Position numbers and translations under genes: made by a program
Assembly (NCBI RefSeq): GCF_947623445.1
Contig: NC_135243.1
Location: forward strand, 20,902,479 to 20,966,478
Length of the DNA stretch: 64,000 bases
Source of the DNA: Clavelina lepadiformis
Taxonomy: Eukaryota; Chordata; Ascidiacea; Aplousobranchia; Clavelinidae
Direction of reading: 5' to 3'
Notes under the pieces: model-generated
What the model was told of the DNA's origin: nothing
Databases searched by the model: none
Seen by the model: only the letters and a program-made list of their open reading frames with translations
In this document: piece by piece, positions 31,270 to 58,018 of the stretch
Numbering within the stretch: the first letter of the stretch is position 1
Layout: each line of letters opens with the position of its first letter

Positions 31270-31915
31270 ATGAACAGCAAACTCCTTCTTTCACTGTTGA
31301 TCATTTGCTTCGTCGCATATGCAGCTGAAGGACAAGCTCCCGACCGTTTGGTTCCCGTTTCTCGAGGTGAGAGTTTGCCTACAGACTGTACAAAACAGAT
31401 ATATAACTTACTTTTACTTCTAACAAGAGCTGTGCATTTACCATGTTGCGAAATAATATAAGTATAATAAATTAATCACATATATAATCACTATTATGTT
31501 GCTAATTAACCTCTTGTTAGATGCCTTAAACAGTCTTTACATTACAATAACAATAACATTACAATTACAACTTTTTTACAGTATTTTTTAATTTAGCTAA
31601 CTTTTTATTGTTTTTAGTTGTTTATTTCTGGAAAAGACATTACTACTACAGAATAGTTAGAGTGTGCAGATGGAGGTGTTATTGCATTCGGGTTAACCCG
31701 TTCACTTTCCAGTCTGCAGCTGGACTTAAACAAGTAAATTTTCTTTTATTACATTTTCTTGCTAAACTAAGTTGAAAAATTAAAAAAATCAGAAACATAA
31801 AGTCTCAACTAAATATTCTTTGTCGCATTTATTGCAGGTGAGTGGATCCTTCTGTCGTGGATATTCTAGGGGTGCCGATGTCGAACCCGAAACTGTCTTT
31901 GAAACGAAGGACTGA
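31270..31915 (+). CDS. Secreted cationic Cys/aromatic-rich peptide precursor, copy 1 (96 aa)
   Basis: Exons: 31270-31366, 31618-31733, 31838-31915 (TGA). Residues 1-21 (MNSKLLLSLLIICFVAYAAEG) are split here as MNSKLLLSLLI plus ICFVAYAAEG and form a signal peptide. A short spacer follows, then a strongly basic aromatic core (VVYFWKRHYYYRIVRV, CRWRCYCIRV), then exon 3 with one Cys (SGSFCRGYSRG) and an acidic tail (DVEPETVFETKD). Four cysteines lie outside the signal. The exon phases (1, then 0) are the same in the copies at 36064-36789 and 52963-53644, which supports the model. An AATAAA signal follows near 32012. Precursors with a signal, basic core and acidic tail are known among ascidian antimicrobial peptides (clavanins, styelins), but I recognise no named family. 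An antimicrobial role is inference; a neuropeptide or structural secreted role is not excluded. Confidence 0.85.
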
Positions 31916-34900
31916 TAACACTGACCAGCACACCAGCCATGTCAATCACACGAGTAGACTTTGCTTTTCACGTATATGAATCACTTTTTGCTATTGCGGT
32001 TGTAGATTGTAAATAAATCTTTTGCTGCATTATTTAATGATTACTTTCCTTGTCAGAATTAAGGCAAAGTCTATAAAAGCTGAATCCGTGAAATTCAAAA
32101 ATGGCTTTGCGGTCCGCTAACTGATAGTTATGGGTTGATTAAATTTACAGAATTGATTGAATCTAAGTTGTATAGCAACCATCACAGTTGGAACTAAGCA
32201 AGTCACGCCTTAATGCAAAACGTCTAAAGAGCAAACACAACAAAAAACGATTGAACTCCACGAGCTTTAATGCGTCATAACTCGAAAAACTTATTGCATC
32301 CTGTTTGTCAGTTGAAATTATACACTATTTGCAGCTTTAAACACGAAATGCTTTGCAACATAGATAATAATTCATGTTTAATAGGTTCACGTAAATACAG
32401 ATTATGCAGTGTCAAATGATTTTGTTAAAGATGGCAGCTAGGTATTTCTTCCTTGTTTAATCTGCTGCGAGCTAACATGACGTGTTAACAAGCCCGTGTT
32501 TCAGAAAACTGCCTGGTGTTTTAGTTCAAATCATCGTATTTTGAATGAGCCATTTTCTTTGCAAATCGTTCCTTCAGCACTTTCTGGCGGCAGGTCAATT
32601 ATGAGACTTAAGTTCAAGCAATGATTAACAAATATTTCGTTTGAAATCGGAAAAAATATTTTTAAGAAACTGCAACTAATAATTATTCATGTTTAAAGCC
32701 AGGATTCAACTCGAAGAAAGGTAGAACAATATTTTCGGCTTAAGATATTTCTTTAAAAATTTATTTTCAGAGAAATTTTGTTGTTTTACATAACCATGAT
32801 TTTATCGTGAAATGCGAAAAATCTATTAAAAATAAACACTTGTAACCAAATTACAATCCTCCGACCTGGATCTGCTCATGATGTTTTATGAAATGGAAAA
32901 AGTGGAGTTTGCCTCGGTTTCATCTTCTGTGTTTTGTGTTCTTTGTCTGCTGTGTTATCATAATTTTTAACAAAATAAAGTTTGATATAATCTATAAAAG
33001 GTGTAGTCAAGAACACTGCGAAAAAATATACATTGTACCAGAAGGCAAGCAAAGTTAACCTATATAGTCTTATGGCCATATAGGTTAACTGGTCAAATTA
33101 TACTGAATATTACGTGAAGCCCTCAAGACATAAACGAAATGCTGACAAACGTATCGCTACCAACTAGGGAAATGAAAGTTACTTCATTGATTTAAGTCGG
33201 TATTTGTGTCTTCTGACATAATTACTTCCGTGTGAGTGTCATTTTATATCAATTGCATATCCATTATATCAGGCAATACTTCAAAATCTGATGGCTTTCC
33301 CACTTTATTGTTTTAAGTTTCATAAGTTTTAAGGTTTGCTTCGTTTCAAGCAAAGGTTTGCAGACAAAGCAAAACGTCTGGCTGGCAAAAAATGGCTCAC
33401 AGACCCGGCTGTTGGAAAATCCGGTGTACTGCATATTTCTGCGATATAGCTGTTACACTTGTTTTTGTCCTATATTTATTGCGCTTCTCCCTTGCGGCCT
33501 ATTACGCTTTTTTGTGCTTAATTAAGCACATGTGTCTTTTTTCGACTTGTATCCGACAGGGAATCACACGGTCAGTTTTATATTGGAGCTCCTGAAATGA
33601 GCTGTGTCAACGACACTTAACTAAACTGTTTTTAAATAAAAGGTGTGCTTGTAAATCTGTAAATATTAGAGTGAGGACAACAAAACGTAACATAGCCTAT
33701 GTATACGGTTTATTTAAACACCTCTTTACCGCAGTAAGTTAGGCCTATGCATTTATTCAAGTACACAGAATCGGAGTGATCGAACAAAAATTGCAACAAG
33801 TCCAGTTAAGGTTGAAGGAGTGTTTTTGTCTGTTTTACAAATTGAGTAACAACATTAGTAATTAATGAATAAGAAAACTAAAAACTGCCAAAACCTGAAA
33901 TTTTTTCATTTTAAATCTGCAGCAATGTGAAAAAATTCATTTTCTGTAGAAAACTTAAACCTCCTATGAAACTATCTAAAAAGAAGTATTCCTACCGAAA
34001 TTCTTAGTAAACTTGCACATTATATAGGGCCTGGGACTTAACGATGCACATTTGCCTGCACTTGAATCGATTTGCCAAGCTTAGTGTGATCCTCACAGTG
34101 ATAAGGAAGTGAGACCGAGCTGCTTTGATTTAAGTTTTTAGTTATCCGATGTTTCCTAAGCAGATATATTCTGCCCTGTATCTAACTGCTTCTATCAAAC
34201 GCACAAATGAAGTAAATTTTTTCTTGGTTTTTCCGCAAGAAGGAGCTGCAGCGCAAAATATTTTCCATGTTTCGGTTTAACTGCAAGGTAGAAGTCTGGA
34301 TAAACGTATAGTGACTACTGATTGATTTATTTTAGAAATAGTTGCAGATTTTGAGCCGATTAATCGGTATTGACTGAGTGGCAGATTTAAACGACAGTCG
34401 TAAGTAAATTTCAGCAACATATAGATTTTTTGCAATTTTCTTCTTTCGATTGAAACAGATGGTTTCTGCTATTGCTGTTTTAAATTGTAAATACACATTT
34501 TTTTGCATCATAATATGATTGATTTCATGTCAAAATTAAAAGCAAAATGTATGTATTAAAAGCTGAAATTTTTCTCACATACCAACATCTTAAAACAAGA
34601 AACTTATCGGCCTACGTGCGTGTGTATTTGACGTGTGTATATATGAATAGGTTGTTTACATACATTTTACTTCTTTTATTCATACACTTACTTCTTTCTA
34701 AAAGTCTATTTGTGTGTGTTCACAGAAAATTTATTTTCTGATAATTAATCTAATGAATATGGCCCGCTTTTTGACGGAATCGAAGACTACGAGAGGAAAA
34801 AATTAAACGCTTTTCTAAACTTATATAAATTTTCCAAATTATAAAACCAGCCATCAATAAGCCTACGCAAGAGCGATATATTATAACAACCTTATTCTTT

Positions 34901-36063
34901 ACACAGCCTTTTCCCACCTGAATTTTAGTTGACGAAGTTTTCACCTGAATGAAGTTTTTTGTATAGCTCTTTACCGCTCTTTAACGGTTATGTGTTTTGA
35001 TAAATTCGATTAAGAAAGATCGGTTGGCAAATTTTTTGATAGGTATTTCTTAAAACAATTGTAACTCATAAATACAAAAATAAAATAACTAAATATGTCT
35101 TTTAAGTTGGGAAAACTGCTTTAGTATTTGGCCCAAACTTTCTATAACTTATACTGTAGTTTTCAAAGATGTTGTGCAGTAAATTTGAAATTGTCTGACG
35201 TTAAGCACGTTCACACGTGGTAGTAGATTCATGATGTAGTAGATTTTTGATTTTAACAATGCGGATAAGTTTACTTTTAATGCAAGAATAATGTTTTTCT
35301 TTCCACTTGTAGAGTAGCTAAGCAATGAAATCGTCAATTATTGGTTTAGTCTGATTTGCTTGCAACCTGGCAATTTGCCCTGTGTTGAGTGTTGAGTTAT
35401 AAACGTGTTGCGATGAAAGTAGTTTATTAAGGAAAGAACTTTTTGGTAGCTTTATTTCACTCAGTCATCGTCTACTAATAAAAATACTCTCCCACTTCAG
35501 CATATTCGGAGGTCTTAAAATTTGTATAAACGTTTATATTTCGACAAACGTTTTAAGGGCACCAAAATAGTATTCATAGAGAAATACGGAAATATACAGT
35601 AATCTATGCAGATATAAAATCATGTAAAGTGTTTGTATAAAGATATTTTTGTAAAAAGGAAAATATAGACCGCACAAAACGAAATGTATTTCAAAATGTC
35701 CTAGTAAAGATTTTCTCTTTTGGATGTTCTCTTTTTATTGCAGTTTTGTTCCTAGTTTTACGCTTTGCCACATTTACGGTTTGGTGCAAATATAGACGAC
35801 TAAAAAGCTTTGCCATTAATTTGTGAAAAATTAATAATTTTCAAACAAATTGAAATTTTTTGCAACACTCAAAAATGTCACCATTGTATACCAAAACGAG
35901 AAACTACCTGTCCCGCTGTTTGCCTAAAAGTTCCTATTCTTCTAAAAAACGACCACAATTATGTTTTGCAGCTGGGCAAGGAGTTTTATTTACATTTTAA
36001 TTAAGCAATTGAAAAACATTTCGATTTCGTATACCATTAAATCGATTTCAATAAAACAAGCAG
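31916..36063. other. Intergenic stretch between peptide genes
   Basis: No complete gene is supported. It contains a 3'-end relic of a peptide gene (34380-34560) and a passage (32545-32670) resembling 24510-24660. Other open frames here are short and lack splice-consistent partners or recognisable motifs. Confidence 0.5.
34380..34560 (+). pseudogene. Relic of a peptide-gene 3' end
   Basis: The sequence from about 34440 resembles the 3'UTR of peptide copy 1 (31965-32080): shared landmarks are TGCTATTGC-GTT, ATTGTAAATA, TTTTTTGC or TTTTGCTGC, ATGATT, TGTCA-AATTAA, and AAAAGCTGAA. Just upstream, AACGACAGTCGTAAGTAA resembles the last codons of copy 2 (TACGACAGTCGAAGAGGTGA). No signal-peptide exon or core exon was found upstream, so this looks like a decayed or partial fourth copy. 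Confidence 0.45.
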
Positions 36064-36789
36064 CTAGTCATCATTTTTGCTGCTATATACTTCCTCAGGT
36101 AAGAGCAGACCTCTGGGTCTTGTTCTCACGGTGCAGCGATTATCACCGACCTGCAAAAACAAACAAAACCATCTTAATTTTTACAAAGTTTAAATTAATA
36201 AAGATTGATTCCACAAGCATAGGCTTACAGATGTATTTTTGAAATAGCTACAACCGTGATAATTCTTGTTTGTCAATATAGTCACACGAGTGCTTGTTTG
36301 CTCAATTTTGGTTACTAAAATACTAACATACGAAATACTAACAATACTTCTAAATACTTCACAGGTAAAAGTTGTTATATGCTAATAAACAAAACCCGAA
36401 TAAATAAGAAGCAAAACGTTTACCCATTGCGTTTGCGGTGGTGCTGAATACGGGAATATGTTTATGCACCAGCACCTCCATATCGTGTACTTTGTCGTAA
36501 CATAGTAGGTGTACTTTTTCCAAACGTAGATCGTTTGACCTGTAATTTGTCATTAATACGCGAATTAGTAGGAAGAAAATTTGACTTTGCATGGTATATA
36601 TCGGTATAATTATACATTTTACTGCAGTATTTTGCAAGTATAAAGTATTTACTATACTTTCATAAAATAAACATATACAGTAAAACAGATTTCAAACGAA
36701 CTTTGAGGCGGGAATAAAGGATTGTGACCTTCCACAGAATATGCCATAAAGCAAACCAGGAGCAAAGCAAAAAGCAGCTGAATCTTCAT
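36064..36789 (-). CDS. Secreted cationic aromatic-rich peptide precursor, copy 2 (96 aa, three Cys)
   Basis: Minus-strand exons: 36789-36702, 36539-36424, 36150-36064 (TAG). The signal peptide is MKIQLLFALLLVCFMAYSVE followed by G. The core in exon 2 reads QTIYVWKKYTYYVTTKY, then TIWRCWCINIFPY; exon 3 carries DNRCTVRTRPRG and the tail LPEEVYSSKNDD. Where the other two copies have Cys before WRCxC, this copy has Thr, leaving three cysteines outside the signal. The splice sites and phases match the other copies. On the complement, ATGTAAATAAAAC at about 35980-35997 matches the polyadenylation region of the 53 kb copy. The promoter and 5'UTR are described separately. Intact by inspection; role inferred as host-defence-like, not shown. 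Confidence 0.85.
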
Positions 36790-36999
36790 TCTTGCTTTCT
36801 TCTGATGTTTTTCAAAAAGGAAAATCTGTTGAAGGTTGAAAAAACGTCCATTAAAGCGTTATTGGCCTTTTATAGAATTAATTCGACTGTTTAATTAATT
36901 AATTAATATAATATATTCGACTAATTACTGTAAAATTATATCCATATGTATATCCGTTATCGTTATATCCAACGTACGTTTAATTTTTTTTTTGCAAAC

Positions 37000-37115
37000 A
37001 GCTTATGAACTTACAAGTGACTTTTGGTTCAAATTTCTTTCTTTCTTCTCTTCTACGAGAAATCAATCATATCAGGATGATGGTAGGGTGTGAAAATCGC
37101 GACTATTTATACGTG
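37000..37115 (-). promoter_or_regulatory. TATA box and 5'UTR exon with intron donor for the minus-strand peptide gene
   Basis: On the complement, GTATAAATAGTCGCG lies at about 37112-37098, followed by a 5'UTR ending GTCACTTGTAAGTTC near 37014, a splice donor. GTAGAAGAGA and TTTGAACCAAAA in the UTR are shared with the 53 kb copy (CTATAAATAGACGCG; GTAGAAGAGA; TTTGAACCAAAA; GTAAGTTTTTAAGCTG). Shared order and spacing support a conserved promoter and a 5'UTR intron. Confidence 0.65.
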
Positions 37116-38799
37116 AAACCTAAAAAATACTTTCAGAAAGAAAAAAATTTATGACGGCAGGGAATTTCTGAAATAAAAAGAAAAAAGCGACCAAATTTAG
37201 GAAAACCAGAGACGATCATTATTCTTTCCAAATCAATTAATTGTGGCAATCTATTGTTATGCTTTGAAAGATAAGATGTTATACGTTGAACCTTTTTCTT
37301 GATCAAAACAAAGTTTTTAATGATTCAATAATATCCACTTTAATGGAGATTATATTAAAACAACTTCTTATTTAATTATGGATCCAAAAAACTATTGAAT
37401 ATGTCTTGTTGCATAATGACGTATTTGGAATTTTGTTACTAGTTTCAACTTGACAGCTTACACAATAATACAGTCTAAGGCAGAGTAAAATGTTTTCACA
37501 CACAACATTTCTACCGTTTTTTTGCAAAGCTTTCAAATTCTAAATAAAGTCGTCAATTTGAAGTGGCCATTCCTAATGCTCTTGCAACATAAAACGTGAC
37601 TCGATATCTTGGACGGTGTCCATTAAACGTCAACGTTGTTGTTAATGTACGAGTTCTGTTCAAATGTTATTAGTCTTAAATTTATTCCCACCAAACGTAT
37701 TACAGTAACACCCAGGCAAAGTTTAGTTTGAAAGAAGTGAATTTAGCCTTTTTGTGTACGTATGAGTATGAAAAACTTTGAAGACTGACATTTGACTAGC
37801 TATTTTTCTCTTTCAGGTCTTAGATTTAGACGTGTAGTGTGCTTTGTTTCTTTCTGCACAGAAACGCATTGAACTCTTGCAGCAAAGAAATTGCATCATA
37901 TTTTGCTCAATGCCGAGTTGTAGCAATACAAGCCGTTTTTTGACTGGTACCATTTGGAGTTGTGGCTCAAGTCACGTCAAATCGTTGCATTTTACTTCAC
38001 AAAACTTTTTCTGACGTCACACATATACTATGCGTTACGTTAAATGCCTAATGATGACGTCATGGCTGTCCCCAAATTACAGTTGCGTGCATGGTTGATA
38101 CATTTTTCATGGACGTGTAATTTTTTGAAAATTCCATTTTACTGCTTAAGGCTTTATTACGTTTCCGTCACAATTGTACTAACGTGACTCGAGTCAGGTG
38201 ATGTTATTCAAGATATCTGACGTGGGTCAAGTCAAGTCTTGGGAAAACGTGACTCGAGTCATTACAATACTGGGTCAAAGCTTCGATATAATCTAATTAG
38301 ATAGAGAAGATACAACAAACCATTATGACGCAGTCATCTTTGCGTCATTGTTCTGACCGGGAATATCAGTTCCAGTCAGTCCATTTAAATCGTCATGAAC
38401 ATCGACATCAACAAGGCAGTAAATAGAAGATATTTTATTGATGACTTAACAATGACCAACAAGATGTTCCACAAAAATAACATGGCGCTGCATACGTGAC
38501 ATGCAACATGCATTTAAAATTTGCAGAATCGGAAGGTGGAGCTTTATGCGTTGCATAAATTCCATTTTATAACAAATAACAGTACAAGTTTGTAAGTTGC
38601 ACAATTTAAAAATGACAATGTGATTGCATCGCATTAGAAAGGGTTTTAAACTTATAAATGCCCATCGTTGTTATGATTAAAAAAGTTTACTGCAATAGCA
38701 CTTTTGACTCGGCTTAGTAGATATATAAATACCCAAAAAAAAAGAAATTTCCTTACAGTGAAAAGTGAATAAATTAACACTGCAAAGAAAGCTGCATTG

Positions 38800-39950
38800 C
38801 TACAAAGTAAGTCTTAAAACTCCTGCAATAGAAAAATATATTTTTATGTCACGTGCCGGTATGGGACGTTGCTTGGCGACAACAAATTTATCCTTTTCAA
38901 TTTTGCGTTGTCAAGTGTTCTTCAAATAACAGTGTTAATGACATTGCTTAATTGCATCGTGTTAATGACATCGCATTTAATTTAAGAGCAAACGGTACAT
39001 TTTTTTGAATATCATTACATGTGGCCAATATGCGGTCGCCGATTATATTCTCCAGAGCATTTTTATACTCATCTATATCTAATACATCATTCCATTTCGT
39101 TTTGCTTTAGATTGTATAAGTAAGCTTTGTAGTTGCTTTTAAGCAATACAGTATTGACGACATGAAACAATATAAACGCGAAAAAATGTCAATTAGAATA
39201 CAGGAAGTTTCGCTATAGAGCAAAGGCATTTTTTCATAATAAGCAAACTTATACTGTGTGTTATATAAGCTTTTGCTTAGTCTTAAAACGTAATTGGCCG
39301 GTCTTCGAGAAAATTTAGATGTCATATTTTAAAATAGACTTTTTTTTCTTTAGGGTGTTAAAATTAGGTTATAGAGGTCAGCAGATTCTAAAATCAGCAG
39401 AACTTTAAGGTTACGTCAAACCTAAATTAAGCAACTGCTTGAAAGAACACGGAGATCGTTTTAATGCTACAGCTATTCTACAATCGCTGTTACATCTGCA
39501 GTAGTACATTAAAAGGAAGGTGAAGGGTTTAAGATAAACGTGACAAGAAAGTTTGAAAACCGATTTGTTGACCACTATCGGTTCCAATGAAGAGTTTTAT
39601 AAAAATTACAACGAACGCTTTGTGGCTGCTTGTTTTGCGGTGAAAGATGCCAGCCACAGCCAAGCCGATATGAATGGCATGACATACACTTACTATTTTT
39701 TCCAATTGCTTTTGCTTTAGGCTATATTAATTAATTCATTGTTATGTGACATTGTTGATTTGTTATAACTTGTTTTTATTCTTTTGTTGAACTTGGGAAA
39801 ACGTCTTTCCAGAATTAAACCTTACATTTATGTACCTGTATATGCAGGTAATTTTTTGTGCTTGAAAACTCCCAAATTTGTCATTGGAATCACGTGCTGA
39901 CATAATGACGTCAGCTAAGCTGTTTTACCACGAGGTTATATCTAAATAAA
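38800..39950. repeat. Partial third copy of the duplicon, next to the minus-strand peptide gene
   Basis: The passage resembles 55170-55420 and 56870-57150 in the same orientation, and so also the left arm in inverse. Landmarks are TATGGGACG-TG-TTGGCGA, AATATGCGGTCGCC, GCCA-AGC, CAATT-C-TTTGCTT-AGGCTA, and GGAATCACGTG-TGACATAATGAC. It lies on the 5' side of the 36.4 kb peptide gene just as the left arm lies on the 5' side of the 53 kb peptide gene. Confidence 0.6.
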
Positions 39951-40789
39951 ATAACTGTATGACTCCGAGCAAAAAGATTGGGATCTAAATTTAATTTTAA
40001 GTTTTAAATGAATTTTAAATCCAAAAAACGGGATTTCAAGCGCCAAAGTTTTTGATCTTTTGCGATAAAATGGAAGCTTTACTTTTTGCTTTTTTCCGCA
40101 AATGTTTCAAGAAGCGCCATTTGCTGTTTAGAATCTTCATTAAAAACAAACTGTTTTTCTATGCGTACTTTCATCTTCAAAGACATGCAAGTGTAACTTT
40201 GGTACAAAAATATGTAAATTTTAAACGATTAATACATTGACAGAGAAACGAGTGTTATAAAAAGATATGTTTTCTTACATTTTAATTGTAATAAGGAAAA
40301 TAACACATTGTCATTCCACTTATATGATGCAGAAGAAAAACGAACAAATCCCAAAGGCAAGGGTATATCAGGGGCGTTGAGTCCGAAAATGCCATTACTT
40401 TTGCTGAATTGTCTCTAGTTTTTGAGATATAGCTTCTTCCTACGTATACCATGAAAAGTTAGAAATGTATGCTAGTGAGTAACATAGGTTAATAAAAACT
40501 GAAGCCATGTGAAGCAGCTATTTAGTTTTGCCCAAATATTGAGTACTCTGGCACAAATTTCTCACTTGAGAGGTAAACAAGGCCTTAGATTAGTTTTTAT
40601 CATCTCCCATCAAGCACTAACATAAGCTTTGTAGCGCACTGATAAAGCAATAGTTAGTTGCCTGTGTTCCAATTTGTCACTCAGTCGTTTTAAAGGAACA
40701 CTACTAAAGTGTAAAGATGGTCCTGAAGTAACTTTCTTATACTGAGCATAACTGGGAGATATGCGTTGATTTGAAAATGGTCAACTTTC

Positions 40790-41285
40790 TCTTAGGACAA
40801 CAAGGCGGCTACACCAAGTATCCATGGTTTATTCGTTACTGGGATAGTCGGGCCACTGATCATTAAAAAGGAATGGCCCATACGTGAACAGCTTGTGCAT
40901 GGAGATAAAAACATTGTAAATGAACCTTTGGTCAGTCGGGATCGCATCATTTTAGTCCCATTGCACATCAAATTGGGTTTGATGAAACAATTTGTCAAGG
41001 CCTTAGATTCAGAAGATGGTGGATCAAGGATAAGCATAAAAGTTCACTATCTATTCAGTCACTTGGATCGCTTCCCTTAAAACCTCGGATATATGAGTAA
41101 GGAACAAGGTTTCACCAAGATATCAAAATAATGGAAGAGAGATATCAAGGTAGATGGGATACTCACATGATGGCAGATTGCTACTGGTGCCTAATGCGAA
41201 GCTGTCCACAACAAGACTACAGGCGAAAGTCGTACAACAGGACTTTCCTGCAGATGACTTCAAGCTAATTTGAATCAATAACTAG
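40790..41285 (+). other. Broken relic of a transposon-associated coding sequence
   Basis: The translation contains motifs that I recall from a multi-copy, transposon-associated protein of many animal genomes: GYTKYPWF near 40806, LHIKLGLMKQFVKAL near 40965, SHLDRFP near 41055 and MEERYQGRWDTHMMAD near 41131. The element family is not assigned. It looks broken and shorter than the usual protein, with no intact reading frame, and is probably old. No terminal repeats were found. Confidence 0.55.
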
Positions 41286-43948
41286 AGTGCATCTAACAAC
41301 TTCACTAATGCACATCCTGAGATGGGTATATTTCTTCGTAAGGTGTTTTGCTTTGAATATTCCGTTGTAAATGAAAAAAATTGATTGCTTTTTCATTTCG
41401 TCTGTTTTTACAAATTGTTGTCTTTCTTGTGTAGGCTTAGGCATACTTGGTTTGTTATTAACAAATTACTGCTATTTATTGTTCACTACATGAAGTTACG
41501 CATAAGCTAAATAAAGCAACAGAAAGTGCAAGAAACATTGCAACAAAGCATTTCTCGATATTCATTTATTGTATCAACTCTACACCGAATATCAACCCAT
41601 TGCTGTTTTACCGATGGTTAGAATCAGACTCGATTGTGCCGACCAAAGCAGGAGTTTTTGTAGAATTATTTTTTTGCAATTACAGAAAAATGATTTACTA
41701 CTATGACAAAATTTAACCCAATACCAAAAAATCAGATCAGAAACAAGACATAGGAATAAGCTTGCCAATCCATAAAAGTAAAAGGTGACCATAACTACCA
41801 ACAACTTTTGGCAAATAAACGAAGCCATAAAAATAATATTGAAGACCAGAAGTTGCCTACTCTGATTGAAGAAAGTAAAATAACAGTAACAGTATATTAT
41901 GAATATTGCACCAATTTGAAGTAGATTTCGTTTCAGAAAAATTATTGAAGAGGTAATCACAAATCAACAAATCATGACATCAATTGCATTACAAAATTGA
42001 CATAAAAGTAAAAATGAATGAAAAACGAAATTTATAAAATGATAAAAGAATTTTAACTTAAATAAATACAGAATCAAAAATACTGACAATCATAGCATTA
42101 TATCATAACATCACAAAGCAAGATCACGGAATCAAACTGCAACAAGTGCATGATTAATGAAGTTTTCATCAAGTTCATCGTCAATCATGGACCATTCGTC
42201 TGTGGTTGGGTCGTAACATTCAAGTGAACACAAAATAACACCAGACTGACAAGCTCTGCAACAAAAGTTTTGTGGTTGATAGAACAACAAAAGGCTGGTA
42301 AATTTCAAACTTGTCTCTCTCGAACGTTTTTTCAAACAAGTTAACTATATGCCGAACGCAATGGAATGCAGTAACAATATCAATACCCCACCCACCCTCC
42401 AACAGTGTAAATCTTTCCCTGGACAACCGATGCAGCATGACAATGCCGCGATTCCTGCATTGCGCTAACATTGTTCCATTCACCGGTGATGACGTCATAC
42501 CTTTCCACACTTTTTTCAATTTTATCATCACGTGATTCTCCCCCTATTTTTAGATCCATTAAATGAGTGAGTTTCAGAAAAAACCATACAACAAAAGGAC
42601 AAATTTTTGTAAACGATATCACAAATGTCTTAGTGTTGACATGTGGGACCTGCCATGGTGGAAACAACTTACCCAGTGCATAAATATAGTTGTCATCCAT
42701 AGGCACAGCTGCTAGCCAGCTACGAAAAGTTTTCATGGGTGCAATTTCATCCCAACTATCACTTCCAGGATCGTAACGTTCTACAGAGACAAGTCGACTC
42801 CCATTATCATCTTTTAAGCGCCCACCAATGGCATATACATGACCTCCAAGCAAAGGTATCTAAATAAAAAATCACATCGTCATTGCTTATCATTTAAATA
42901 CACCGCATTTAGTCTACATATCATTTTAGACATCGCTTCATGAGCTGATGTTTGCTATTGACATTATGAGTGGAAACCACTACTACTGTCACCTTTACAA
43001 GCAGCAAGCGCATGTGTACTTCTTGCCAGTTTCATTGCTGATATCTTAGTCCAAGCATTGGAAGTTGGGTTGTAACATTCTCCACAACGCAAATAAAGTC
43101 CGTTTTCATCAACACCACCGGTGACGTATATTTTATCTGTGAATATTTATATTTTACAAGTGTTTCCAAAATAAGCTTAAAAAGTTTTAGAAAGACCTGC
43201 GGCACGCATTTAGCAAGCAGATAACTATTGTTGAAAAAACAGAAACATTTCAATGAAATATTAAACATGTTGCTGAAAACAATGTTTGCTCTTTTCTATG
43301 ATCTACAATTATACATCATTCGTTGTGGTTTGTGCTAAAATGTTCTTTTTCCTACTTCGCTGAGGCAGTTGTTTAATTTTGTACATTTGACATTCTGGTC
43401 ACTGAAATAAAATGCAATAGTTTTCTTATACAAAAGAGAAGTAAGTAACATACAGAATTAGATTGAAACAAACCATTTAAAATAGCCGTCCCATGACCAA
43501 ATCTTTTTTTATTCATTGGAGCAACATCTTTCCATTCCAAATCATCTTCTTTCAGGTTTAAACAAGATACACGGTTTGTTGTGGTGTTAATTTCTTCACC
43601 GGTGGTTCCACCGACTGTATAAAGCAAGCCTTGAAGAAACACTGCACCACAGCATGAACTTCCAACAACCATGTTCTGTAAAAGATAATTTGCATCTGGT
43701 TAAATGATTGTTAGTTTTCAAACTTAGAAACTTTGCATTATAGATACTGATTATCAGTTTTTACCAGGTAAGTTTTTCTCGGTGCTTGGGAAACATTAAA
43801 AATTTCAAAGACTTTTTCATACATTGATTCGCCTCCAACTACTAATAAGGATGTTGGGCCATCTGCAATATATATTGTTTGTGTTAAGCAGTCAGCTAAA
43901 TGTTAACTCAAGAAACATGCATATTGACACGAATGATACTTCCAAGTA

Positions 43949-44121
43949 CAGTAGAACCACAGACCACTCCAGTATTGCGGCTACTTAAACAGGGTTCGGA
44001 ATATCTTCTATTCTATTGCAATATATACCATTCTCTTTCACTAAACCGGCCACCATGCTAATTGCTAACCGAAGCATTTGACAAAGGTCCCGTGTATAAC
44101 CGACTTACCGAGGTTCTACTG
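43949..44121. mobile_element. Tigger/pogo-like MITE shared by both arms
   Basis: The 173-bp element begins CAGTAGAACC and ends GGTTCTACTG, flanked by TA on both sides. The corresponding element at 58583-58756 lies at the equivalent intron position in the right arm, inverted. It was therefore present before the inverted duplication. Confidence 0.75.
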
Positions 44122-44604
44122 TAGATATAACGTCACACATTTTGGTCACATATCGCACAGGTAATTCATCCTTGTAATTTTGATACCTTTTTTTCTGACA
44201 CAACGAGTCATTTCTTTCCCAAGAATTTTTGAGCACTGGCACTCAAAATTAATTTTACACAGTAATTGGTTTTCCCACTACATGGAAACACGGTTCATTC
44301 AAACTTAATTTGATGAAATATTTTACTTCGTAGTTACTTTTACTATACTTCGTACTCATGTAAGCTATAAGCAAATTTTTCTGAACGAAAGTTTGTTATC
44401 ATTTATCGAAAATTTGGATTGCAACTCATGTATAACATGAGAGTGCAACTGAAGCAAGACAATTAAAACTGTACCTAATGCCAAACTACTAGACATTAAA
44501 TGGGAGACTTTTTTGATCCAGAGTTGGGGATGTAGCTTATGCAGGTATATGACTTATACTCAGAGAGATAGGCAACAATTAACATATATTTTACTACACA
44601 TATA

Positions 44605-45086
44605 CAGTGAGACCTCGTTAATCGGAACCCCGAACAACCGGAATCCCGGCTATTCGACACAGAACCACAAGGAATTAATTTCTTTCTATGCATTTTACCC
44701 CAATAATCTGGAAACCCCACTGTCCGACTCCGACACTGAAGTTTTGGAACAAATTTGCTAAATCAATAGAAAAAAATCTGATAAACTGGATTGTAAAGTG
44801 CGAAGTGAAAAAAAAACTTGTGAATGCAGGTTTTTGTCAAGATGACAAAAACAATAGCGAGTTAGCCGATCTACACATGATAAAATCAGCTGTTTCACTC
44901 CTGGGCTTCTGTAATGGGTTTGAGTGTCAAGTACAGAAGCCCTACAATCATAGTTTAGCAGCACGGCCTGACATTCACTACGAAACATTTTGCCTTATTG
45001 TTGTTTTGATGCCGGTTATCCGGATAACTTGCTAAACTGACATTTTGTGGCGAAACAAAGTGGTCCGGATTAACAAGGTCTGACTG
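44605..45086. mobile_element. Tigger-like non-autonomous element, 482 bp
   Basis: It begins CAGTGAGACCTCGTTAATCG and ends in the complement of CAGTCAGACCTTGTTAATCC, with TA at both flanks. These ends are typical of Tigger/pogo elements of the Tc1-mariner superfamily. Open frames inside are remnants without a recognisable catalytic domain. No counterpart is seen in the right arm, but the right-arm region is partly deleted, so the order of events is not proven. Confidence 0.75.
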
Positions 45087-48000
45087 TATGTACAGTTCAT
45101 ACATTTATTAGTATTACACAATATGATTTTTATATGTCATACACAGGACACCACTTGATACAAATGACATAAACATCTGATACCATTTTATTGTGAAATT
45201 GCTTTTTAAACACCATTCTGGTACAAATACAATTTTCACAAAACCTAAGATATCCAAAAATATAAAATGATGTGAAGAAAGCTTACCTTTTTAACATCTA
45301 AAATTGAATGTAGTTCAGTTAGTTTTAACTGTTGAAATTCTTCAGACATAATAATATCATCTAAATTTTAAAGAATGAAAAACTTAGCACCATCTTGAAG
45401 TTCCTTACTGAGATAAAGGTCAGCCAGGGACAAAATGGTGAAAACTGTGTCAAAATTGATGGATACCTGAAGAAACTTTAAACAAGCTCCGCTTACATCT
45501 AAAAGAATGCAGAAAAACATTCTGAAATTAAACATATATATACATAACGAACACCATTTCAGCCACTAAGGCCAACATATAAAATAATCTAGAGCAAAAA
45601 TGTACTTCCATAGTAATTTGGTGTTTTAGAAACAATGATTTCACAATAATAATTTGGTGCAAAATAAGTGAAATATCTTTAATCATAAAAACACTTACCA
45701 TCAATTTGCAACATGTTAGAGGCTGAAAGTAACTCAAAAACATCGTCCTTATTAATGTCTATTTGATTTGTGTAAAAGTATTCAACAAGCGATTTCATTG
45801 AGGAACTTGTAACGCTCTTTATAGTGACTTCATTTTGGTAACTCTCCTGCATCTTAAAAGATTATTCAATAATGGTTAATCAAACGTAGTTAGTAGGAAA
45901 TACTGTATAAGTAAGGATCATTTCAATACCAGTAACAGTAAAGCTAATGTTTATGTATACTAAATCATATTCATTTTTATTATTCTTTGATTGTAAAGTT
46001 TACAAATTGCATGCAATATTCCCAAAGTTAATATTTCATTGGATAAGCAACTTACCTCGCTTTCAAACATTCTTTCAAAATACTCTGAGTTAGAAGACAA
46101 TATCATTTTATTCACTGAAAAGATCACATTTTCCACTTTGATATCCACATCATTAAATCTTCCCATGCGACGCTTTCTAAATTTTTTAACCTGTGTCAGG
46201 ATATGTACAAGGAGTCTAGCACACAACCAAATGACATCAAATATGGGTAGCAGGGATCTAGTAGAGTCAGGGGGCAAGTGTACATTAGTACCCAGAGTAT
46301 GGATTTCGTTTAAAATCGCTATTATTATAACAAATTTTTCATCTAATTTTGTAGGGTTTTTGAAGATAGTTCAAAACCTTTTCAAACCATATGCATAAGT
46401 TCAAGTTTACGTATAAAACTTTTAGCTCCATTGCAGCAAACATACCCACCTCACAAAAACATAATTTTAAAGCAAAAGTAAAAGTTCAATTTCTGGTGCA
46501 AAAACTCCAATTAAAGAACTCTTTTTCTGCACAATTGTGCACTAATTTCTTCTCTGTATATACATGTAAAGTTAAATTTTTACGGAGCTAACTTCTAAAA
46601 ATTTCGTTTTTGTGAAATACGTACTTGTGAAAAGATTGGATGACATTTAGCTAAACGATGCAGATTGATAGTAAATGTTTATGTGATACATAATTAAATT
46701 CTACATCTGATGATATAAAATTTGCTGCTATTGATGCTGTACGTTGAGTGCATATTGTTGTTGTGTTTTTTATTATGTTTAGGTTTTAATCAGGAATATA
46801 TTTTTCGTATCGGTACATAGTCTACTCGACCTTATACAAATGCATCACATGGTTGCGCACTTATGCTTCAGACCCTATTAAAGTATTGTTAAGATAATAA
46901 ACCATGCTAGTAGTTTAATTTATGAATGTTGTTGGCTTAGTTTATCATTCGTCATCAATCGAGCAAACTGCGATATAACTTCTTAAATATAGTTAGGTTT
47001 AAAGGGTGTTTTCTAGACCTCAATCTTCAAATTTATTTACATCCATTAAACTTAAAGTTTAAATAAAATTTTATGGAAGGGCTAGCCTAGGGCAAGCAAG
47101 TCCAGGTGGTGCAATGTAGCCTCATAACTTGAATTAAAACATATATAGCAAAACTATAATACCTATTGGCATAGTCTAGGAGATCTTCATCCGTTTTTCT
47201 TTTATGGCGCATTTCTCGAGTAATGATTTTGTCCTTTAAGTAAGCCATGCAGCTGATAGGCTTTCAGCCAAAATATAGAACTACCATATTCATATTGCAA
47301 AAAAGCATACATATTAGGCTATAATTAGTAAACTAGAAAAATTTTTAAAACATATGGAAAACCAGACTAATGAACATAGCCTAGGATGCCATTTCCTACA
47401 TCAGTAATTGTTAATTAACTTTTGTTTGTTTGTTTATTATAAAGTAAGGTAAAAATAGAAAAAATTCGGTGTATACGTTAAAAATCTCGTTAGTGCAGGT
47501 GTCACACTTTCTACTACGGATTCGACTCCTACACTTTGACACTTGACAGTACCGTAAACCGCCTTAGGTGAAGTTTTGTACGACAGCTTGATAAGGCTTG
47601 TACATTTATCACTCTTGAAAAATACAGAGGTCAGAACCATTTTCACATTAAGTCATACAATAAGTAGTTTGAAACAACGACATCATATTAGCCTAACAAG
47701 ATCTTTTTTGATACAATTTTTCACCAACTTTGTTGGGCTTATGGCAATTTAATTATATAACCGCGAATTGAAAGTTAGCAAGTTGTAGTTTTAAGGCTGG
47801 GATAGGAAATTTGTCATTTATTGACTTTAACTACGTGCCGCTACTTTAAATCATAGTGCAGTCTATGCATAATATTTTCTGACGACCGCAATATAGGAAA
47901 AGAATCCTGAAGTTGTATTTTACGTCTTCAAGCGGTACTTCGGTGAAATGCCAGTCGTTTGTAAACTAACTGGAAGTAGACATTAGACAGGCAGGGGCAG

Positions 48001-48474
48001 CATTGTAAACAAGCGCAAAAATTCCGATTTATTATTTACGTCTTCGAGACGCTTTTGCGCTACCATAGTAGGCCTAATGTTAATGTAATTGGGCATCCGT
48101 AGCGTTAACGACGCTTGCTCCGGTCCAGTGTCTCTCTTATCAAGTCCAACTTCGGGCGATACATTGAATTCTCAAAATAAATAAATAAGAATTGTGTATG
48201 ACAAACAAAACTTAAGAAAACTTCGGTAACCATGGCTGGTGTGATGAGGAATGATCCTCGAGTTGAAATGGTGCACAGAACTTTCTCTGTCTGCAAAAAA
48301 AAAACTGTGATGCAATACCAGTAGCAACAAAATTGCTGGAGTTTAAATCTCTTTTTTACGCAAATAGAGATAACATTCAACCATATTAAGCTTAATTAGA
48401 TTATAATCCTTTCTCTGACTTTGTACAAAATACGGCAGGCAAAGAATTTCTGTCATTGTAGGCTATTTAAAACA

Positions 48475-48775
48475 TGGGTTCTTAACCATGGCCCACTGGT
48501 GGGCCACAGGAGCATTTTGAGGTGGGCCACAGAGCTATTTGGAAAATAATAAAGTTGGTGAAAATTTTAGTTTTATTTAGTTGGTGACAATTTTGTAACG
48601 TCCAAATTCGCATTTGTTGTTTGTTCAAATTATATGATTTAAGTGATAATGATTTATATGATTTTGTGTCGCCCAAAACTCCAGGTCCAGGTTCAAAACT
48701 TAGGTGATCAGCTTTGAAAGTGGGCCACGAGCAAACGAAAGTGGGCCACGACTATAAAAAGGTTAAGAACTGGCG
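48475..48775. mobile_element. hAT-like non-autonomous element
   Basis: The left end has GGGTTCTTAACCATGGCCCA and the complement of the right end reads CAGTTCTTAACCTTTTTATA. The interior repeats GTGGGCCAC several times near both ends. These resemble hAT termini. The exact boundaries and a target duplication are uncertain. Confidence 0.55.
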
Positions 48776-50404
48776 GTTAATGCTTTACAATAACTGCCAA
48801 ATTATAGAAGTTATATATATATATATCGCTATCTGACTCTTAAGAATAATTAGAAGGTTGCGAATTCTGTCTAGAAACTCCTAAACTTCAGTTGAACAGT
48901 TTATACAACCTTAAACGCTGAGATTCTGATTAATATAATTTTTAATATTCTTCCTTATTATTTCAAACAAACACTAAAATTACAACAATATTATTATTAT
49001 ACAGAAGGGGTTTTAAGAATTAGTTAACAATAAAGGCGCATCACACTACATTTCACATCGATTTAAAGAATTATTCACCGAGTTATTACGATCTATATCT
49101 TCTCATTAATTGAACTTTAAAACTCCAGTGTATACTGAAGAACTAGTATTTAGACAACTAGAACGAATCTAATACTGATTCTGAATGCCCAATTACACAG
49201 CATGCAAAGGTACATTTATACCCTGAAATAGATAATAAAAAAAAAAATTCCACTTTAAGAGCAATGCGTTTTTCAATGGCAGGAAATGATTTGGACTTTT
49301 TGAACTCGAAGTTTTAGCTCAGGTGATAATTACAATCTGGCAATTTTCAATTAAAGGAAACAAATGTTAATCAATATGGTCTATTTTTAGATTAACAATG
49401 TTGTTAATACAAGCTCAATCGTGCAGCTAAACATTTTTACCGACTAAGTTGTCAATCACATAAGGTAATTTTGCATTTTGCAAACTCATACTGCAATGTG
49501 AATAACATGCTTGCAAAACATAATGACAAATATGGAGTTATCATATTTTGCAATAAGCTCAAGGGTGCAATGCAGCAGGTAGCCTATGTTTACGGAACCG
49601 ATTGTCAATCAACTATTCTTCGATAAGTTTGCAATTATACCGTGAACTTAGATTGAACTTATGGCAAGTATGACGTTATGTAATAGCGCGTTAAATATCA
49701 GAAATTTGATTAAAATGATACAACTTGGAAGACAATGGAAACAGTGTCTTCCAGAACCCTGATTTAAAAGAACTTCGTAAACACAACCACTGGTGTCATT
49801 ATGTCATCATCTAATTCCAATGATAAAAAGGGAAATTGCCAAGCCCACGTAGCTTTGATTTTATATGCATAAAGTCTAATTTTAGAGTGACATCTTTCCC
49901 AAAATCAGTTGAAAAATATTAACAATCTGCAGTGTCACTTAAATACAATTGAGTAATGGTAGCCTGAAGCAAATGAAATTGGAAAGATATAATCAATCTA
50001 CTTGATAGTTTTGCTACGGCTGTCATACTCCACCACAAATAATACCGCAAAGTTTTCGTTGTTCACTTTATAAAATCTTTTGGAAAAACCGATGGTTAAT
50101 ATACCGCTTCTTGTGACGTTGCAAACTTTTACCTACAGTATAACTTGGAATTTTAAGGAGATTATGGATTTGATGCAGCCTTGAAGCGATCCATGAGCTA
50201 TCTTCAAACGTTACTTTACGATTGACGTTAATTTGAAATTGGAAAACAAATCTAAAAAGAAAGAAAGAAGTTGTTGTTTTTTAGTTCTGCTGACCTTAAT
50301 AACTTTAACGTTTTTAAGAAAAAAAGTGTTAAACTCTCTCTGAACAACCGAATTTTAAGCAATGCATAGACTATTTACAATATCTTTTATTCTCTACAAG
50401 TTTT

Positions 50405-50720
50405 CGTAATACAGTAGTCTCGCTTATAGGATCTACGGATATTAGATCCAGTCACTGATTGGAGCCAAATCCCGTGGAACGGAATTTCTACATAGCCTAC
50501 TAACCTAACTAACGTAGTGCAAAATACTTCGCTTAGTGGATCCACGACTCCGGTTAGTGGATCCACTCCCAACGTCTGGCAACGTAGTAAAATGCTAAAA
50601 TGTAGTAGAAACCTAGTAAAATGCTTTCCCCAGCTGTTGTAACGTCTCTTTTCATGTTGTCGGCTCTGACAAATTAGCCGTTGTGATGTCATAGACACTA
50701 TAGTTTGCGTGGGTACCTGT
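50405..50720. mobile_element. Fragment of a Tigger/pogo-like element
   Basis: It begins TACAGTAGTCTCGCTTATAG and contains GGATCTACGGATATTAGATCC and two GTGGATCCAC-like passages, the style of Tigger ends. The opposite terminus was not found. The long minus-strand open frame crossing it reads through repeat sequence and is not supported as a gene. Confidence 0.5.
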
Positions 50721-52716
50721 TCGTGTACGAGTACCTGAGTACATGCGAAAGAATTTTCCTCCTCGACAATCAACTTTAGATAGATTTTTTTAAATGCTTT
50801 CTTTGTGTTTTTTTGAGTGATTTATGAGTAACTTTTGTGTTCTTTGAGTTATTTCCAACGTTCATATACATTACATGATTAACAACCGTGCACACTGAGT
50901 TTGTTTTGGTCATATGGAGACCTAAAGTAGATCAGCCGTTTATTGGAGCTTCCTGTTAACACGATTACTCGTCTTTCACCTTTGTATAACGCTTATGTCA
51001 TTAATACTGTATTGTAACCACCAGCCTAATTGTTAATGTTTATAGAATTTTATATTGGCTATTAAAAGAAGTAGAATAATGAAATAAAGAAGTGTAAAAG
51101 TTCTCTTTAGGAATGTCATTGACAACCGCATATTGTTTTCCTCAAGTAATGATGCTTTATAACATTCTTATTGGTGTGTTTGTGCTTAAAATAAACTACA
51201 AGTAATTGCAAGAAAACTGCCATTTAATAGAAACTTGACAGATAAATTACTATTTAAAATAAAAATTGTTTTCGCCAAACACGCTCGAATACTGTAGCAG
51301 GTGACACAAAACATATTCTTCCAATGACAAGTGAAGTACTTCGAGAAAAACAGCTTCATTCTCAGTATAACAAACTATTTGCTTTTCACTACAGTGACTA
51401 CATGATAATGTTTGCATTGTTTTAGAGATTTTGATAAGCTATGGTTTTAGGAAAATAAGGACTTAAAATGTATTAAGTCGTTAATTTGAAACTATTCAAC
51501 AAAAATGTTAATGCGATAATCAGTTACACTAACAATTAAATTGCACACATTTGAAACCCTTTATGGATCGAAGCATTCACAAACGCTAGACACAAATTTT
51601 GAACTACCACTGTTGTATACTATGAAAGGACTTTTATGTGACACAAAAAGCTCAACTTACAAGTCTGGTGATTTCTGAAGTAAACATGTATGTTTTGTAT
51701 TACGTATATGGCGTATAAGTGTTGTTTGTGGTTGCATTTTGTTCGTCGTTGCTCAGTGATTACTAAGATCTTCTATATGTATAAATACCTTGTTGATGTC
51801 ATGTGCTCCCAATGGGAGATTGAGAACTGGCATTCCCGATGGGAACCATGACGAAACGATGGCTGCTTTGTAATGACCTGCTAAATGTTCTTCATCACTT
51901 CAGTTTGACTATCAGGAAACTTTGGGGAGAACGTAATGCAATTAAATTTTTTACGTTAAACAGAAACCCAATGAGAACGCACAACCTACCTGAAACCATA
52001 CCTTGAAAAAGGGATAAAGGCGCCTTCCAGCGTCTATAGAAATGTCTCCAAATATACTTGTGCCAAAAGGCTGAATGTCACCTCCTACCAAATATACTTT
52101 GTTCGTACGTTTGCTTGTGGTGGTGAAAATATAAAATCGAATACGTTTTAAACACAATTCCTTTATACCAGCAAATATGTTGGTCTTTGATGTACACCAT
52201 GCAAAATTTATTGGTACGTTCTATGTTGCAAGAGCATTATTAACAATGACCATCGCAATATCAAGTTTCCGTTTAGCGTATACCTTAAAACTTTGCCGAA
52301 AATTGCTGTAAATAATGTCAATGTGATGCAGTTTCTAAAACGTTTTACTCAACCTTTTCATAATCATATATCGAACAGCTCGTTGATGTTAGGCACACGA
52401 ACACAATTTTGTTATTATGTCACATTAATGCACGCTTTATAATACGCCAGGTTTTTTAATCAAACGCTAAGTCATATTTATAACCAGTATTGTGATAAAC
52501 ATTGCATATCACAATTTTTTTGTCGCTCGGGAAAATGTTTCAAGGTTAGCAGTAAAAGCAGTTTTTATTTCCTTTTAAAATATTACAAAAGTGATGCCAC
52601 AATTGGCATTGAAAGGTTGAGATCATCTCTGTCATCCGCATAACTTTTGTATTTTGTTCCATAAACTTCACACTGTCGCATTTTTTTGTTCGGAAAATAT
52701 TTGTTTTAGGTTTCGC

Positions 52717-52927
52717 CTATAAATAGACGCGTTTTTCACATTGTTCGGTCATCTTGACATATCAATTTCTTGTAGAAGAGACGCAAAAAGTTTGAACCAA
52801 AATCACCGGTAAGTTTTTAAGCTGCGTGCAATGATAAACAGAAAAGTAGGCCTACGTTTAAAATTACTGTAATTAAGTAAAATAACTTATATAGAAGTTC
52901 AATAACTCATTTGATCAACTTTTTCAG
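52717..52927 (+). promoter_or_regulatory. TATA box, 5'UTR exon and 5'UTR intron of the 53 kb peptide gene
   Basis: CTATAAATAG lies at 52717-52726. The likely 5'UTR exon contains GTAGAAGAGA and TTTGAACCAAAA and ends at 52808 before GTAAGT. The acceptor TTTTCAG ends at 52927, 35 bp before the ATG. The same elements occur in the same order upstream of the 36.4 kb copy. Confidence 0.65.
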
Positions 52928-52962
52928 ATTTTACTCTTTAAACCCATCGGAAGAAAGATAAG

Positions 52963-53644
52963 ATGAAATCTCACCTGCTTTTTGCTTTGATGCTGGCTTG
53001 CTTCATGGCATATACTGCCGATGGACAATTTCCTTCATCTTCGCAAAGTTTGTATAAAATCTGACAATGTTATTTTATGAAAGTGGAAATATTAATATGA
53101 GTAATGCATTAAATTGTACAATTATGCTCATATACATATGCATGATACATTTGTAGCAAAAATCATTACCCATACTTTTCCTACGCACATTATTGGCAAC
53201 TTACAGGTAAAACTTTGTATATTTGGAAAAAATACACCTACTACGTTATAAAGAAATATTGCTACTGGAGATGCTGGTGCATAAAAACATTCCCATTTCT
53301 TCCTTCCCGGACAGAATGGGTATTTTCTTCATTTGTTATATCTAGTAGCATATTAACTTATACTAGTTAAGTATACTTAAAGTCTTTATTTACAGTGAAA
53401 TTGCTCGAATAGGCACTTGTGTAGCTATAGTATCGTATACGGTTAAACAAAAATCATTATGTCTGTAGGCCTACCAGTTTCAAATTATGATGAGATTGTA
53501 GAATAAACTTTTGTAACTTTACAATTCATAGAATTTAATGCTATCTTGTTTGCTTTTCAGGCGAGTAACAGCCGTTGCACCAAACAAAAACCTAGCCAGC
53601 GTTTCTCACCTGAAACAGTATACGACAGTCGAAGAGGTGACTAA
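52963..53644 (+). CDS. Secreted cationic Cys/aromatic-rich peptide precursor, copy 3 (93 aa)
   Basis: Exons: 52963-53047, 53207-53319, 53561-53644 (TAA). The signal peptide is MKSHLLFALMLACFMAYTAD then G. The core is KTLYIWKKYTYYVIKK followed by YCYWRCWCIKTFPF; exon 3 carries NSRCTKQKPSQRF and the tail SPETVYDSRRGD. Four cysteines lie outside the signal (C-x3-C-x-C, then one in exon 3), as in copy 1, which would allow two disulfides. Phases are identical to the other copies. Reading through the second donor would instead give a hydrophobic extension ending at a TAA; the conserved exon 3 argues for splicing. AATAAA follows near 53717. It lies in the spacer of the inverted duplication. An antimicrobial-like role is inference from layout and charge. 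Confidence 0.87.
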
Positions 53645-53936
53645 TTGGCCGTTTTATTGGCATCTACTTCACGGTTTACGAAAGCGGAAACTTCCTTTCA
53701 ATTGCTTTGTTAAAATGTAAATAAAATTTCTTGGTGAGCTGCATAAAAATACTTGTGTTCGTTTGATAAAAAAGGAGAAATTCTTCACACTTTACCAAAG
53801 CCAGGACACAGCATCACTTCAAGACATAAATGTTACATAAACTTTTAATCGCAATGCAAAATTTACGACAAAGCAACGACGAACAAAACACACCACAAAC
53901 AACACTTTGACATGTACGTAATAGGCTATAAAAAAT

Positions 53937-57940: not shown

Positions 57941-58018
57941 GCGGTTCCCAAACTGGGGTCCGTAACGCAGATTCAGATAGTCCGCAATGAGAATTACTCT
58001 TTAAAGCAGTTTCAGAGG
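57941..58018 (+). mobile_element. hAT-like terminal fragment at a deletion junction
   Basis: CAGCGGTTCCCAAACTGGGG followed by TCCG is a typical hAT terminus. It lies where the right arm passes directly from sequence matching about 47180 to sequence matching about 44430, that is, at the point where the BTB-containing interval is missing. The other terminus is not seen. Confidence 0.5.

What the first reader, a model, noticed from the sequence alone, without database searches (positions are those of the whole stretch)
31270..53644. A dispersed family of three secreted, Cys- and aromatic-rich cationic peptide genes that matches no family I know
Seen: three genes (31270-31915 +, 36789-36064 -, 52963-53644 +) with the same three-exon structure and phases, a signal peptide exon, a core exon with W-K-[KR]-x-x-Y-Y then W-R-C-x-C-I, and a third exon with one Cys and an acidic PE-V-[YF] tail. 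Known: ascidian antimicrobial precursors often pair a basic mature part with an acidic tail. Inferred: an undescribed host-defence-like peptide family, possibly a disulfide-stabilised hairpin. The core is under clear constraint while spacers vary.
Basis: partly seen in the sequence, partly recalled or inferred. Interest (0 to 1): 0.9.

Follow-up and report, generated by a model that had tools for sequence, protein, structure and literature searches.

The report
Orphan secreted peptide family in sea squirt
A sea squirt genome carries seven related genes for small, positively charged, cysteine- and aromatic-rich peptides with secretion signals that match no family in the libraries searched; they look like defence peptides, but nothing yet shows what they do.

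Summary
The three genes lie where stated, each with three coding exons in phases 1 and 0, a signal-peptide exon, the W-K-[KR]-x-x-Y-Y / W-R-C-x-C-I core and one Cys in exon 3. Chromosome lengths place the window on chromosome 4 of Clavelina lepadiformis. The core shows excess synonymous change (P 0.0006, 0.001); against introns, B-C constraint is only moderate. Pfam, PDB and exact-motif literature searches gave no family match.

The defence reading is plausible but unproven. The acidic tail holds for A and B, weakly for C, not for the four chromosome 3 genes. The hairpin is undecided: thin AlphaFold models give a helix, residue propensities favour strand. Styelin, turgencin, clavanin and BRICHOS membership failed on the features tested. 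Best reading: an undescribed secreted cationic peptide family, most likely host-defence.

The parts
31270..31366 (+). Gene A exon 1 (coding): signal peptide and short linker; predicted cleavage AAEG|QAPD
31618..31733 (+). Gene A exon 2: cationic aromatic core VYFWKRHYYYRIVRVCRWRCYCIRVNPF...
   Evidence: E 1.5e-12 or better to four chr3 paralogs
31838..31915 (+). Gene A exon 3: one Cys, tail PETVFETKD, stop
31010..31015 (+). Gene A TATA element 260 bp before ATG (a second, TATATAA, lies at -91); 5'UTR acceptor with exon start 31237; poly(A) signal at about 32012
36702..36789 (-). Gene B exon 1: signal peptide; non-consensus donor GTTCGT
36424..36539 (-). Gene B exon 2: core TIYVWKKYTYYVTTKYTIWRCWCINIFPY; first core Cys replaced by Thr
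36064..36150 (-). Gene B exon 3: one Cys, tail PEEVYSSKNDD, stop
36869..36874 (-). Gene B TATA element only 85 bp before ATG, unlike the other TATA-bearing members; acceptor-like AG just before 36825
52963..53047 (+). Gene C exon 1: signal peptide; non-consensus donor GTTTGT
53207..53319 (+). Gene C exon 2: core TLYIWKKYTYYVIKKYCYWRCWCIKTFPF
53561..53644 (+). Gene C exon 3: one Cys, tail PETVYDSRRGD, stop
52718..52927 (+). Gene C promoter and 5'UTR: TATA at 52718, 5'UTR intron donor GTAAGT at 52809, acceptor ending at 52927; poly(A) signal at about 53720
41490..61209 (.). Decayed inverted duplication, four arm pairs 92.9% to 77.7% identical, with single-copy gene C near its centre

Best explanation
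A family of seven intact genes in Clavelina lepadiformis, three here and four on chromosome 3, encodes 93-100 aa precursors. The signal peptide is probably removed just before a Gln in 6 of 7 (His in B), releasing a 72-79 aa cationic peptide. Its conserved core packs Lys/Arg with Trp, Tyr and Phe and holds two invariant Cys (WRCxC); a third invariant Cys lies in exon 3 and a fourth, in the core, in 6 of 7. Most likely it is a host-defence peptide that binds and perturbs microbial membranes through the cationic aromatic core, with the Cys closing intramolecular disulfides (or linking dimers in three-Cys gene B). Shown: gene models by sequence, exon plan, paralogs, promoter and poly(A) anatomy, core conservation. 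Inferred: transcription, secretion, cleavage site, disulfides, membrane action, defence role.
For: Intact frames and identical phases in 7 of 7. Paralogs on two chromosomes. TATA within 300 bp in 6 of 7, consensus 5'UTR donor near -150 in 4 of 7 (C, D1-D3), 5'UTR acceptor in 7 of 7, poly(A) signal in 7 of 7. Conserved signal end: small or aliphatic at -3 and small at -1, then Q in 6 of 7, cut placed by eye. Net charge +4 to +10 with 13-15 F/W/Y/H residues after that cut. Core synonymous excess: 15 of 35 changes against 6.3 expected, P 0.0006 (B-C); 16 of 37 against 7.5, P 0.001 (A-D2). Recent local multiplication: D2-D3 95.8% identical over 3.7 kb. Known ascidian haemocyte peptides are likewise small, cationic and often aromatic (PMC10608444, PMC3039461, PMC9966394; passages seen).
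Against: No transcript, peptide or activity evidence. Tail clearly acidic in 2 of 7. No amphipathic periodicity beyond shuffles at 100, 160, 170 or 180 degrees in 4 cores. No full kB site upstream of 7 genes, 0.1-0.2 expected, so uninformative. Against intron divergence (B-C introns 66% and 60% identical, exon 2 69%) B-C core constraint is only moderate. Structure methods disagree. D4 lacks a TATA element within 300 bp.
Confidence: 0.45

Rival explanations
1. A structural or cross-linking secreted peptide of blood cells or tunic: Tyr oxidised to DOPA and Cys thiols form covalent cross-links in tunic hardening, clotting or wound closure, as proposed for tunichromes.
For: Tyr-rich core (YYY, YTYY) with Lys/Arg and Cys; ascidian blood cells are known for DOPA peptides and proteins (PMC3039461, passages).
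Against: Short, non-repetitive peptides; the conserved core is rich in Trp and Arg/Lys as well as Tyr. No direct test was possible.
Confidence: 0.2
2. A secreted signalling peptide or cytokine-like ligand, or a gamete or self-recognition factor, acting through a receptor.
For: Signal peptide, small size, 3-4 Cys, conserved core with variable tail.
Against: No terminal Gly for amidation in 7 of 7; the core dibasic site is lost in D1 and D3 (WRPH), and the other dibasic sites are not shared by all members; strong positive charge.
Confidence: 0.17
3. A distant, Cys-containing relative of the styelin-type aromatic cationic haemocyte peptides.
For: Similar make-up (Lys/Arg, Tyr, Trp, Phe; the styelin composition is partly recalled) and a secreted precursor with material after the basic core; helix in the AlphaFold models.
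Against: The KHK motif reported as fully conserved between botryllin and styelins (PMC9966394, passages) is absent from 7 of 7; styelins are described as linear helical peptides, these have 3-4 Cys. No full styelin sequence was available in the text seen, so no alignment was made.
Confidence: 0.06
4. Decayed or untranscribed copies rather than working genes.
For: D4 lacks the TATA region, B and C have non-consensus intron-1 donors, and two truncated exon-1 relics exist.
Against: Seven intact frames with identical phases, synonymous excess in the core, conserved promoter and poly(A) anatomy.
Confidence: 0.04

Closest known systems
Styelins and botryllin (ascidian haemocyte AMPs)
   Same: Ascidian, precursor with signal peptide, cationic and aromatic mature part
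   Different: Here 3-4 Cys, no KHK motif, no sequence match established; styelins are described as linear helical
Turgencins (Synoicum turgens)
   Same: Cationic Cys-containing peptides of a colonial ascidian
   Different: Turgencins have six Cys in three disulfides and an amidated C-terminus (PMC7024374, start of abstract in listing); here 3-4 Cys and no terminal amidation signal
Beta-hairpin AMPs (tachyplesin, protegrin, arenicin)
   Same: Cationic aromatic stretch with closely spaced Cys; the likeness of CRWRCYCIR to such hairpins is recalled, not tested
   Different: No significant sequence match in the PDB; one conserved Cys is in another exon; the AlphaFold models are helical; no BRICHOS domain (the arenicin-type precursor feature, recalled)
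Mouse defensin alpha-related peptide (PDB 5gwg)
   Same: Local RVCRxxCxCIR similarity, E 2.4, not significant
   Different: 31-residue chain; treated as chance

Membership tests
Styelin/botryllin | Conserved KHK motif | tested here: not met
   Absent from 7 of 7 precursors; feature from PMC9966394 passages
Styelin/botryllin | Homology over the mature peptide | not tested
   No full styelin or botryllin sequence was available in the text seen
Turgencin | Six Cys in the mature peptide | tested here: not met
   Three (B) or four (other six) Cys after the predicted cleavage site
Turgencin | C-terminal amidation (Gly donor at the precursor end) | tested here: not met
   Precursors end in D or A, 7 of 7; an internal cut was not tested
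Clavanin | 23-residue, His- and Phe-rich linear peptide, C-terminally amidated | tested here: not met
   Predicted mature part 72-79 aa with Cys and no terminal Gly; feature from a PMC10608444 table
BRICHOS-type AMP (arenicin, nicomicin) | BRICHOS domain in the precursor | tested here: not met
   No Pfam match in the 4 precursors tested of 7: A, B, C at E 10, D2 at E 1
Beta-hairpin AMP | Disulfide-closed two-strand hairpin | tested here: inconclusive
   AlphaFold gives helix at mean pLDDT about 70 from 3 sequences; strand propensity 1.25-1.30 against helix 0.92-0.94
Antimicrobial peptide (functional class) | Small, secreted, net cationic, rich in hydrophobic or aromatic residues | tested here: met
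   Net +4 to +10, 72-79 aa after predicted cleavage; secretion is predicted by eye only
Antimicrobial peptide (functional class) | Kills or inhibits microbes; expressed in haemocytes or epithelia | not testable with these tools
   No expression or activity data could be examined

The most novel reading that the evidence does not exclude
A new chordate host-defence peptide family with its own fold and disulfide pattern (CxxxCxC plus a distant Cys), restricted to Clavelina or aplousobranch ascidians and perhaps carrying DOPA or bromo-Trp modifications as other ascidian blood peptides do.
Probability: 0.3. Interest if true: 0.6.

Novelty: new variant of a known kind. Interest (0 to 1): 0.4.

Why it matters
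In the reviews seen (passages) tunicate defence peptides come mostly from Styela and Halocynthia. An undescribed multigene family in Clavelina, with a core under constraint and recent tandem copies, gives a concrete set of peptides to synthesise and test, and a case for how short secreted peptides multiply and spread between chromosomes in a chordate.

Tried and rejected
Pfam at E 10 with A, B, C: no family; D2 at E 1: none. PDB by sequence with C, with gene A's core, and with a 7-member profile: best hits E 0.5, 2.4 and 1.6, judged chance.

Exact motif strings in 5.39 million open-access papers: 6 WRC-type strings gave one unrelated clinical paper; 6 core strings gave none. This does not exclude papers outside that library or sequences shown only in figures, supplements or databases.

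Prokaryotic and viral contigs with the family profile: 28 and 24 pattern matches, none confirmed by tblastn.

A WRCSCV stretch about 8 kb from the chromosome 3 cluster was examined and dropped: no significant family exon-1 or exon-3 match in that 9-kb segment. A weak hit on chromosome 8 (E 0.099, one stop inside) was not followed. An 18-base DNA pattern for WRCxCI had 8 matches in the genome, one of them (gene C) in the family. Exon 3 alone was not used as a genome query.

Amphipathic moment tests at four angles: no excess over shuffles in 4 cores. Upstream motif counts over 600 bp of 7 genes, against a crude two-base shuffle: full kB sites 0 against 0.1-0.2; GGGAA 7 against 3.7; STAT-type TTCNNNGAA 5 against 1.9, all in the D copies, which share sequence; TTRNNNAA 82 against 57; GATA 9 against 14.5. 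None was taken as evidence. tRNA scan of the four chromosome 3 loci, prompted by a tRNA-like stretch: none found. COX1 in the assembly for species identification: none; chromosome lengths were used instead. A paper search for Tyr-rich or Cys-rich secreted tunic peptides listed 3 papers, not opened; a Clavelina/antimicrobial search listed 15 of 3,779, not opened. Structure searches were not run because model confidence was low.

Full report
Source. The window is G000:C4:20902479-20966478 in a 209 Mb, 95-contig assembly. Contig lengths C4 25.07, C5 24.62 and C7 20.45 Mb equal chromosomes 4, 5 and 7 of Clavelina lepadiformis kaClaLepa1, and C2 and C3 agree within about 0.01 Mb (lengths; PMC10884593, passages). 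The published assembly is 210.1 Mb in 102 scaffolds, so the copy held differs slightly. Ascidia mentula, also listed, holds none of the five lengths searched. The species assignment rests on these lengths only.

Gene models. A, B and C each have three coding exons with intron phases 1 and 0, GT-AG introns and precursors of 96, 96 and 93 aa. B and C have non-consensus donors at intron 1; position and frame are the same in both, which is why they are kept.

The family. With gene A's core, four further genes appear on chromosome 3 (C3:2312-2324 kb, here D1-D4). They have the same phases and 99-100 aa. Gene A's signal exon finds nine places: seven intact genes and two truncated exon-1 relics on the strand opposite to D2-D4 in the chromosome 3 cluster. 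Seven protein queries with exon-1 or exon-2 peptides gave no eighth intact member; one weak match on chromosome 8 (E 0.099, one stop) was not followed. The tool calls its counts lower bounds, and exon 3 alone was not searched genome-wide.

Relationships. B and C form one side of a fully supported split from A plus D1-D4 (100/100 in protein and DNA trees, 7 rows). The tree is unrooted, drawn from the midpoint, and the tool flags B's long branch, so the order of splits among A, the D genes and B/C is not proven. By identity gene A resembles D1-D4 (52-54%) more than B (36%) or C (40%), although it lies beside B and C. In a DNA comparison of the window with 48.6 kb around the cluster, the only matches at E 1e-4 were a 25-base poly(A) region and a short repeat. 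The D copies are young: D2-D3 95.8% over 3.7 kb; intron 1 is 89% identical for D2-D1 and 98% for D2-D4.

Expression anatomy. TATA elements lie 245-260 bp before ATG in A, C, D1, D2, D3 and at 85 bp in B; D4 has none within 300 bp (6 of 7). A has a second TATATAA at -91. A consensus 5'UTR donor lies 150-155 bp before ATG in 4 of 7 (C, D1-D3), and an acceptor 32-36 bp before ATG in 7 of 7. An AATAAA signal follows the stop in 7 of 7, in the shared context AAAATGTAAATAAA in B, C and D1-D4. D4's upstream 300 bp is 60% identical to D2's while its exons and introns are 94-99%, so D4 may have lost its promoter.

Selection. Nei-Gojobori omega for the core is 0.13-0.15 for A against three of the four D genes, with bootstrap limits from 0.08 to 0.46-0.52 over the 302-363 of 500 replicates in which dS was finite. 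B-C core dS is saturated; whole-gene B-C omega is 0.32 (0.15-0.55). Five of the six D pairs compared have whole-gene omega 0.35-0.69 on very few changes, uninformative. A count test is safer: of 35 B-C core changes 15 are synonymous against 6.3 expected (P 0.0006); of 37 A-D2 core changes 16 against 7.5 (P 0.001). Tails: P 0.16 and 0.09. Signal exons: P 0.46 and 0.05. Result against the reading: B-C introns are 66% and 60% identical, close to exon 2 at 69%, so measured against introns B-C core constraint is only moderate. A-D2 is clearer: exon 2 69% against introns 51% and 48%.

Peptide features. After the predicted cleavage site (small residue, then Q in 6 of 7, H in B) the peptide has 72-79 residues, net +4 to +10, and 4 Cys (3 in B). 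Signal cleavage is judged by eye; no predictor was available. The last 13 residues are acidic in A (-4) and B (-3), weakly in C (-1), and basic in D1-D4 (+1), so a general basic-mature/acidic-tail plan is not upheld. No Gly ends the precursor, and the core dibasic site is lost in D1 and D3, which argues against neuropeptide-style processing.

Structure. AlphaFold on the exon-2 peptide (three window sequences only) gives helix 2-25 plus 27-34 for A and helix 2-27 for C, mean pLDDT 69.5 and 70.0. Chou-Fasman propensities favour strand, 1.25-1.30 against 0.92-0.94.

Known families. No Pfam match for A, B, C or D2; no significant PDB match; no exact core string in the open-access library apart from one unrelated clinical paper. 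The one paper holding Clavelina lepadiformis, transcriptome and antimicrobial peptide together (PMC12373286) was seen only as a listing. Styelin, turgencin, clavanin and BRICHOS membership fail on the features tested. Other tunicate genomes could not be searched, so 'restricted to Clavelina' is not shown.

Reading. Real genes for secreted peptides: very likely, short of RNA evidence. Defence: the most likely single role, at about 0.45, from charge, aromatic-Cys make-up, copy number and the known ascidian pattern. A cross-linking role with oxidised Tyr is the best rival.

Noticed in passing
window 41490-61209: Large decayed inverted duplication: 41490-44241 with 58463-61209 (92.9%), 47174-47884 with 57235-57938 (85.6%), 49763-50325 with 56618-57181 (81.8%), 50941-51681 with 54815-55576 (77.7%). 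The outermost arms are the most alike; gene C lies near the centre. A 451-base piece of an inner arm matched only these 2 places in the genome, though the search skips very common words.
   Followed up: partly
window 13589-13933 (+), 42383-43699 (-), 59848-60177 (+), 45963-46370 (-); weak at 2217-2486 (+): Kelch-repeat gene fragments and a BTB domain surround the peptide genes; two Kelch loci lie in the outer arms of the inverted duplication. The match at 2217-2486 is below Pfam's cut-offs.
   Followed up: partly
window 11262-11708 (+): Open frame encoding a TIR domain (Pfam TIR_2, E 2.8e-15).
   Followed up: no
G000:C3:2317353-2317439 (-) and 2321925-2322011 (-): Two truncated copies of the 5' region plus signal-peptide exon of the family, inverted beside D2 and D3; one has lost its ATG.
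   Followed up: partly
L014, L015, L013 about 1660-1760 (intron 2 of D2-D4): Shared tRNA-like stretch that looks like a SINE by eye; ARAGORN calls no tRNA.
   Followed up: partly
window 4169-4277, 53935-54090, 54631-54751: Short imperfect repeats shared between the start of the window and the region just beyond gene C, in both orientations.
   Followed up: no
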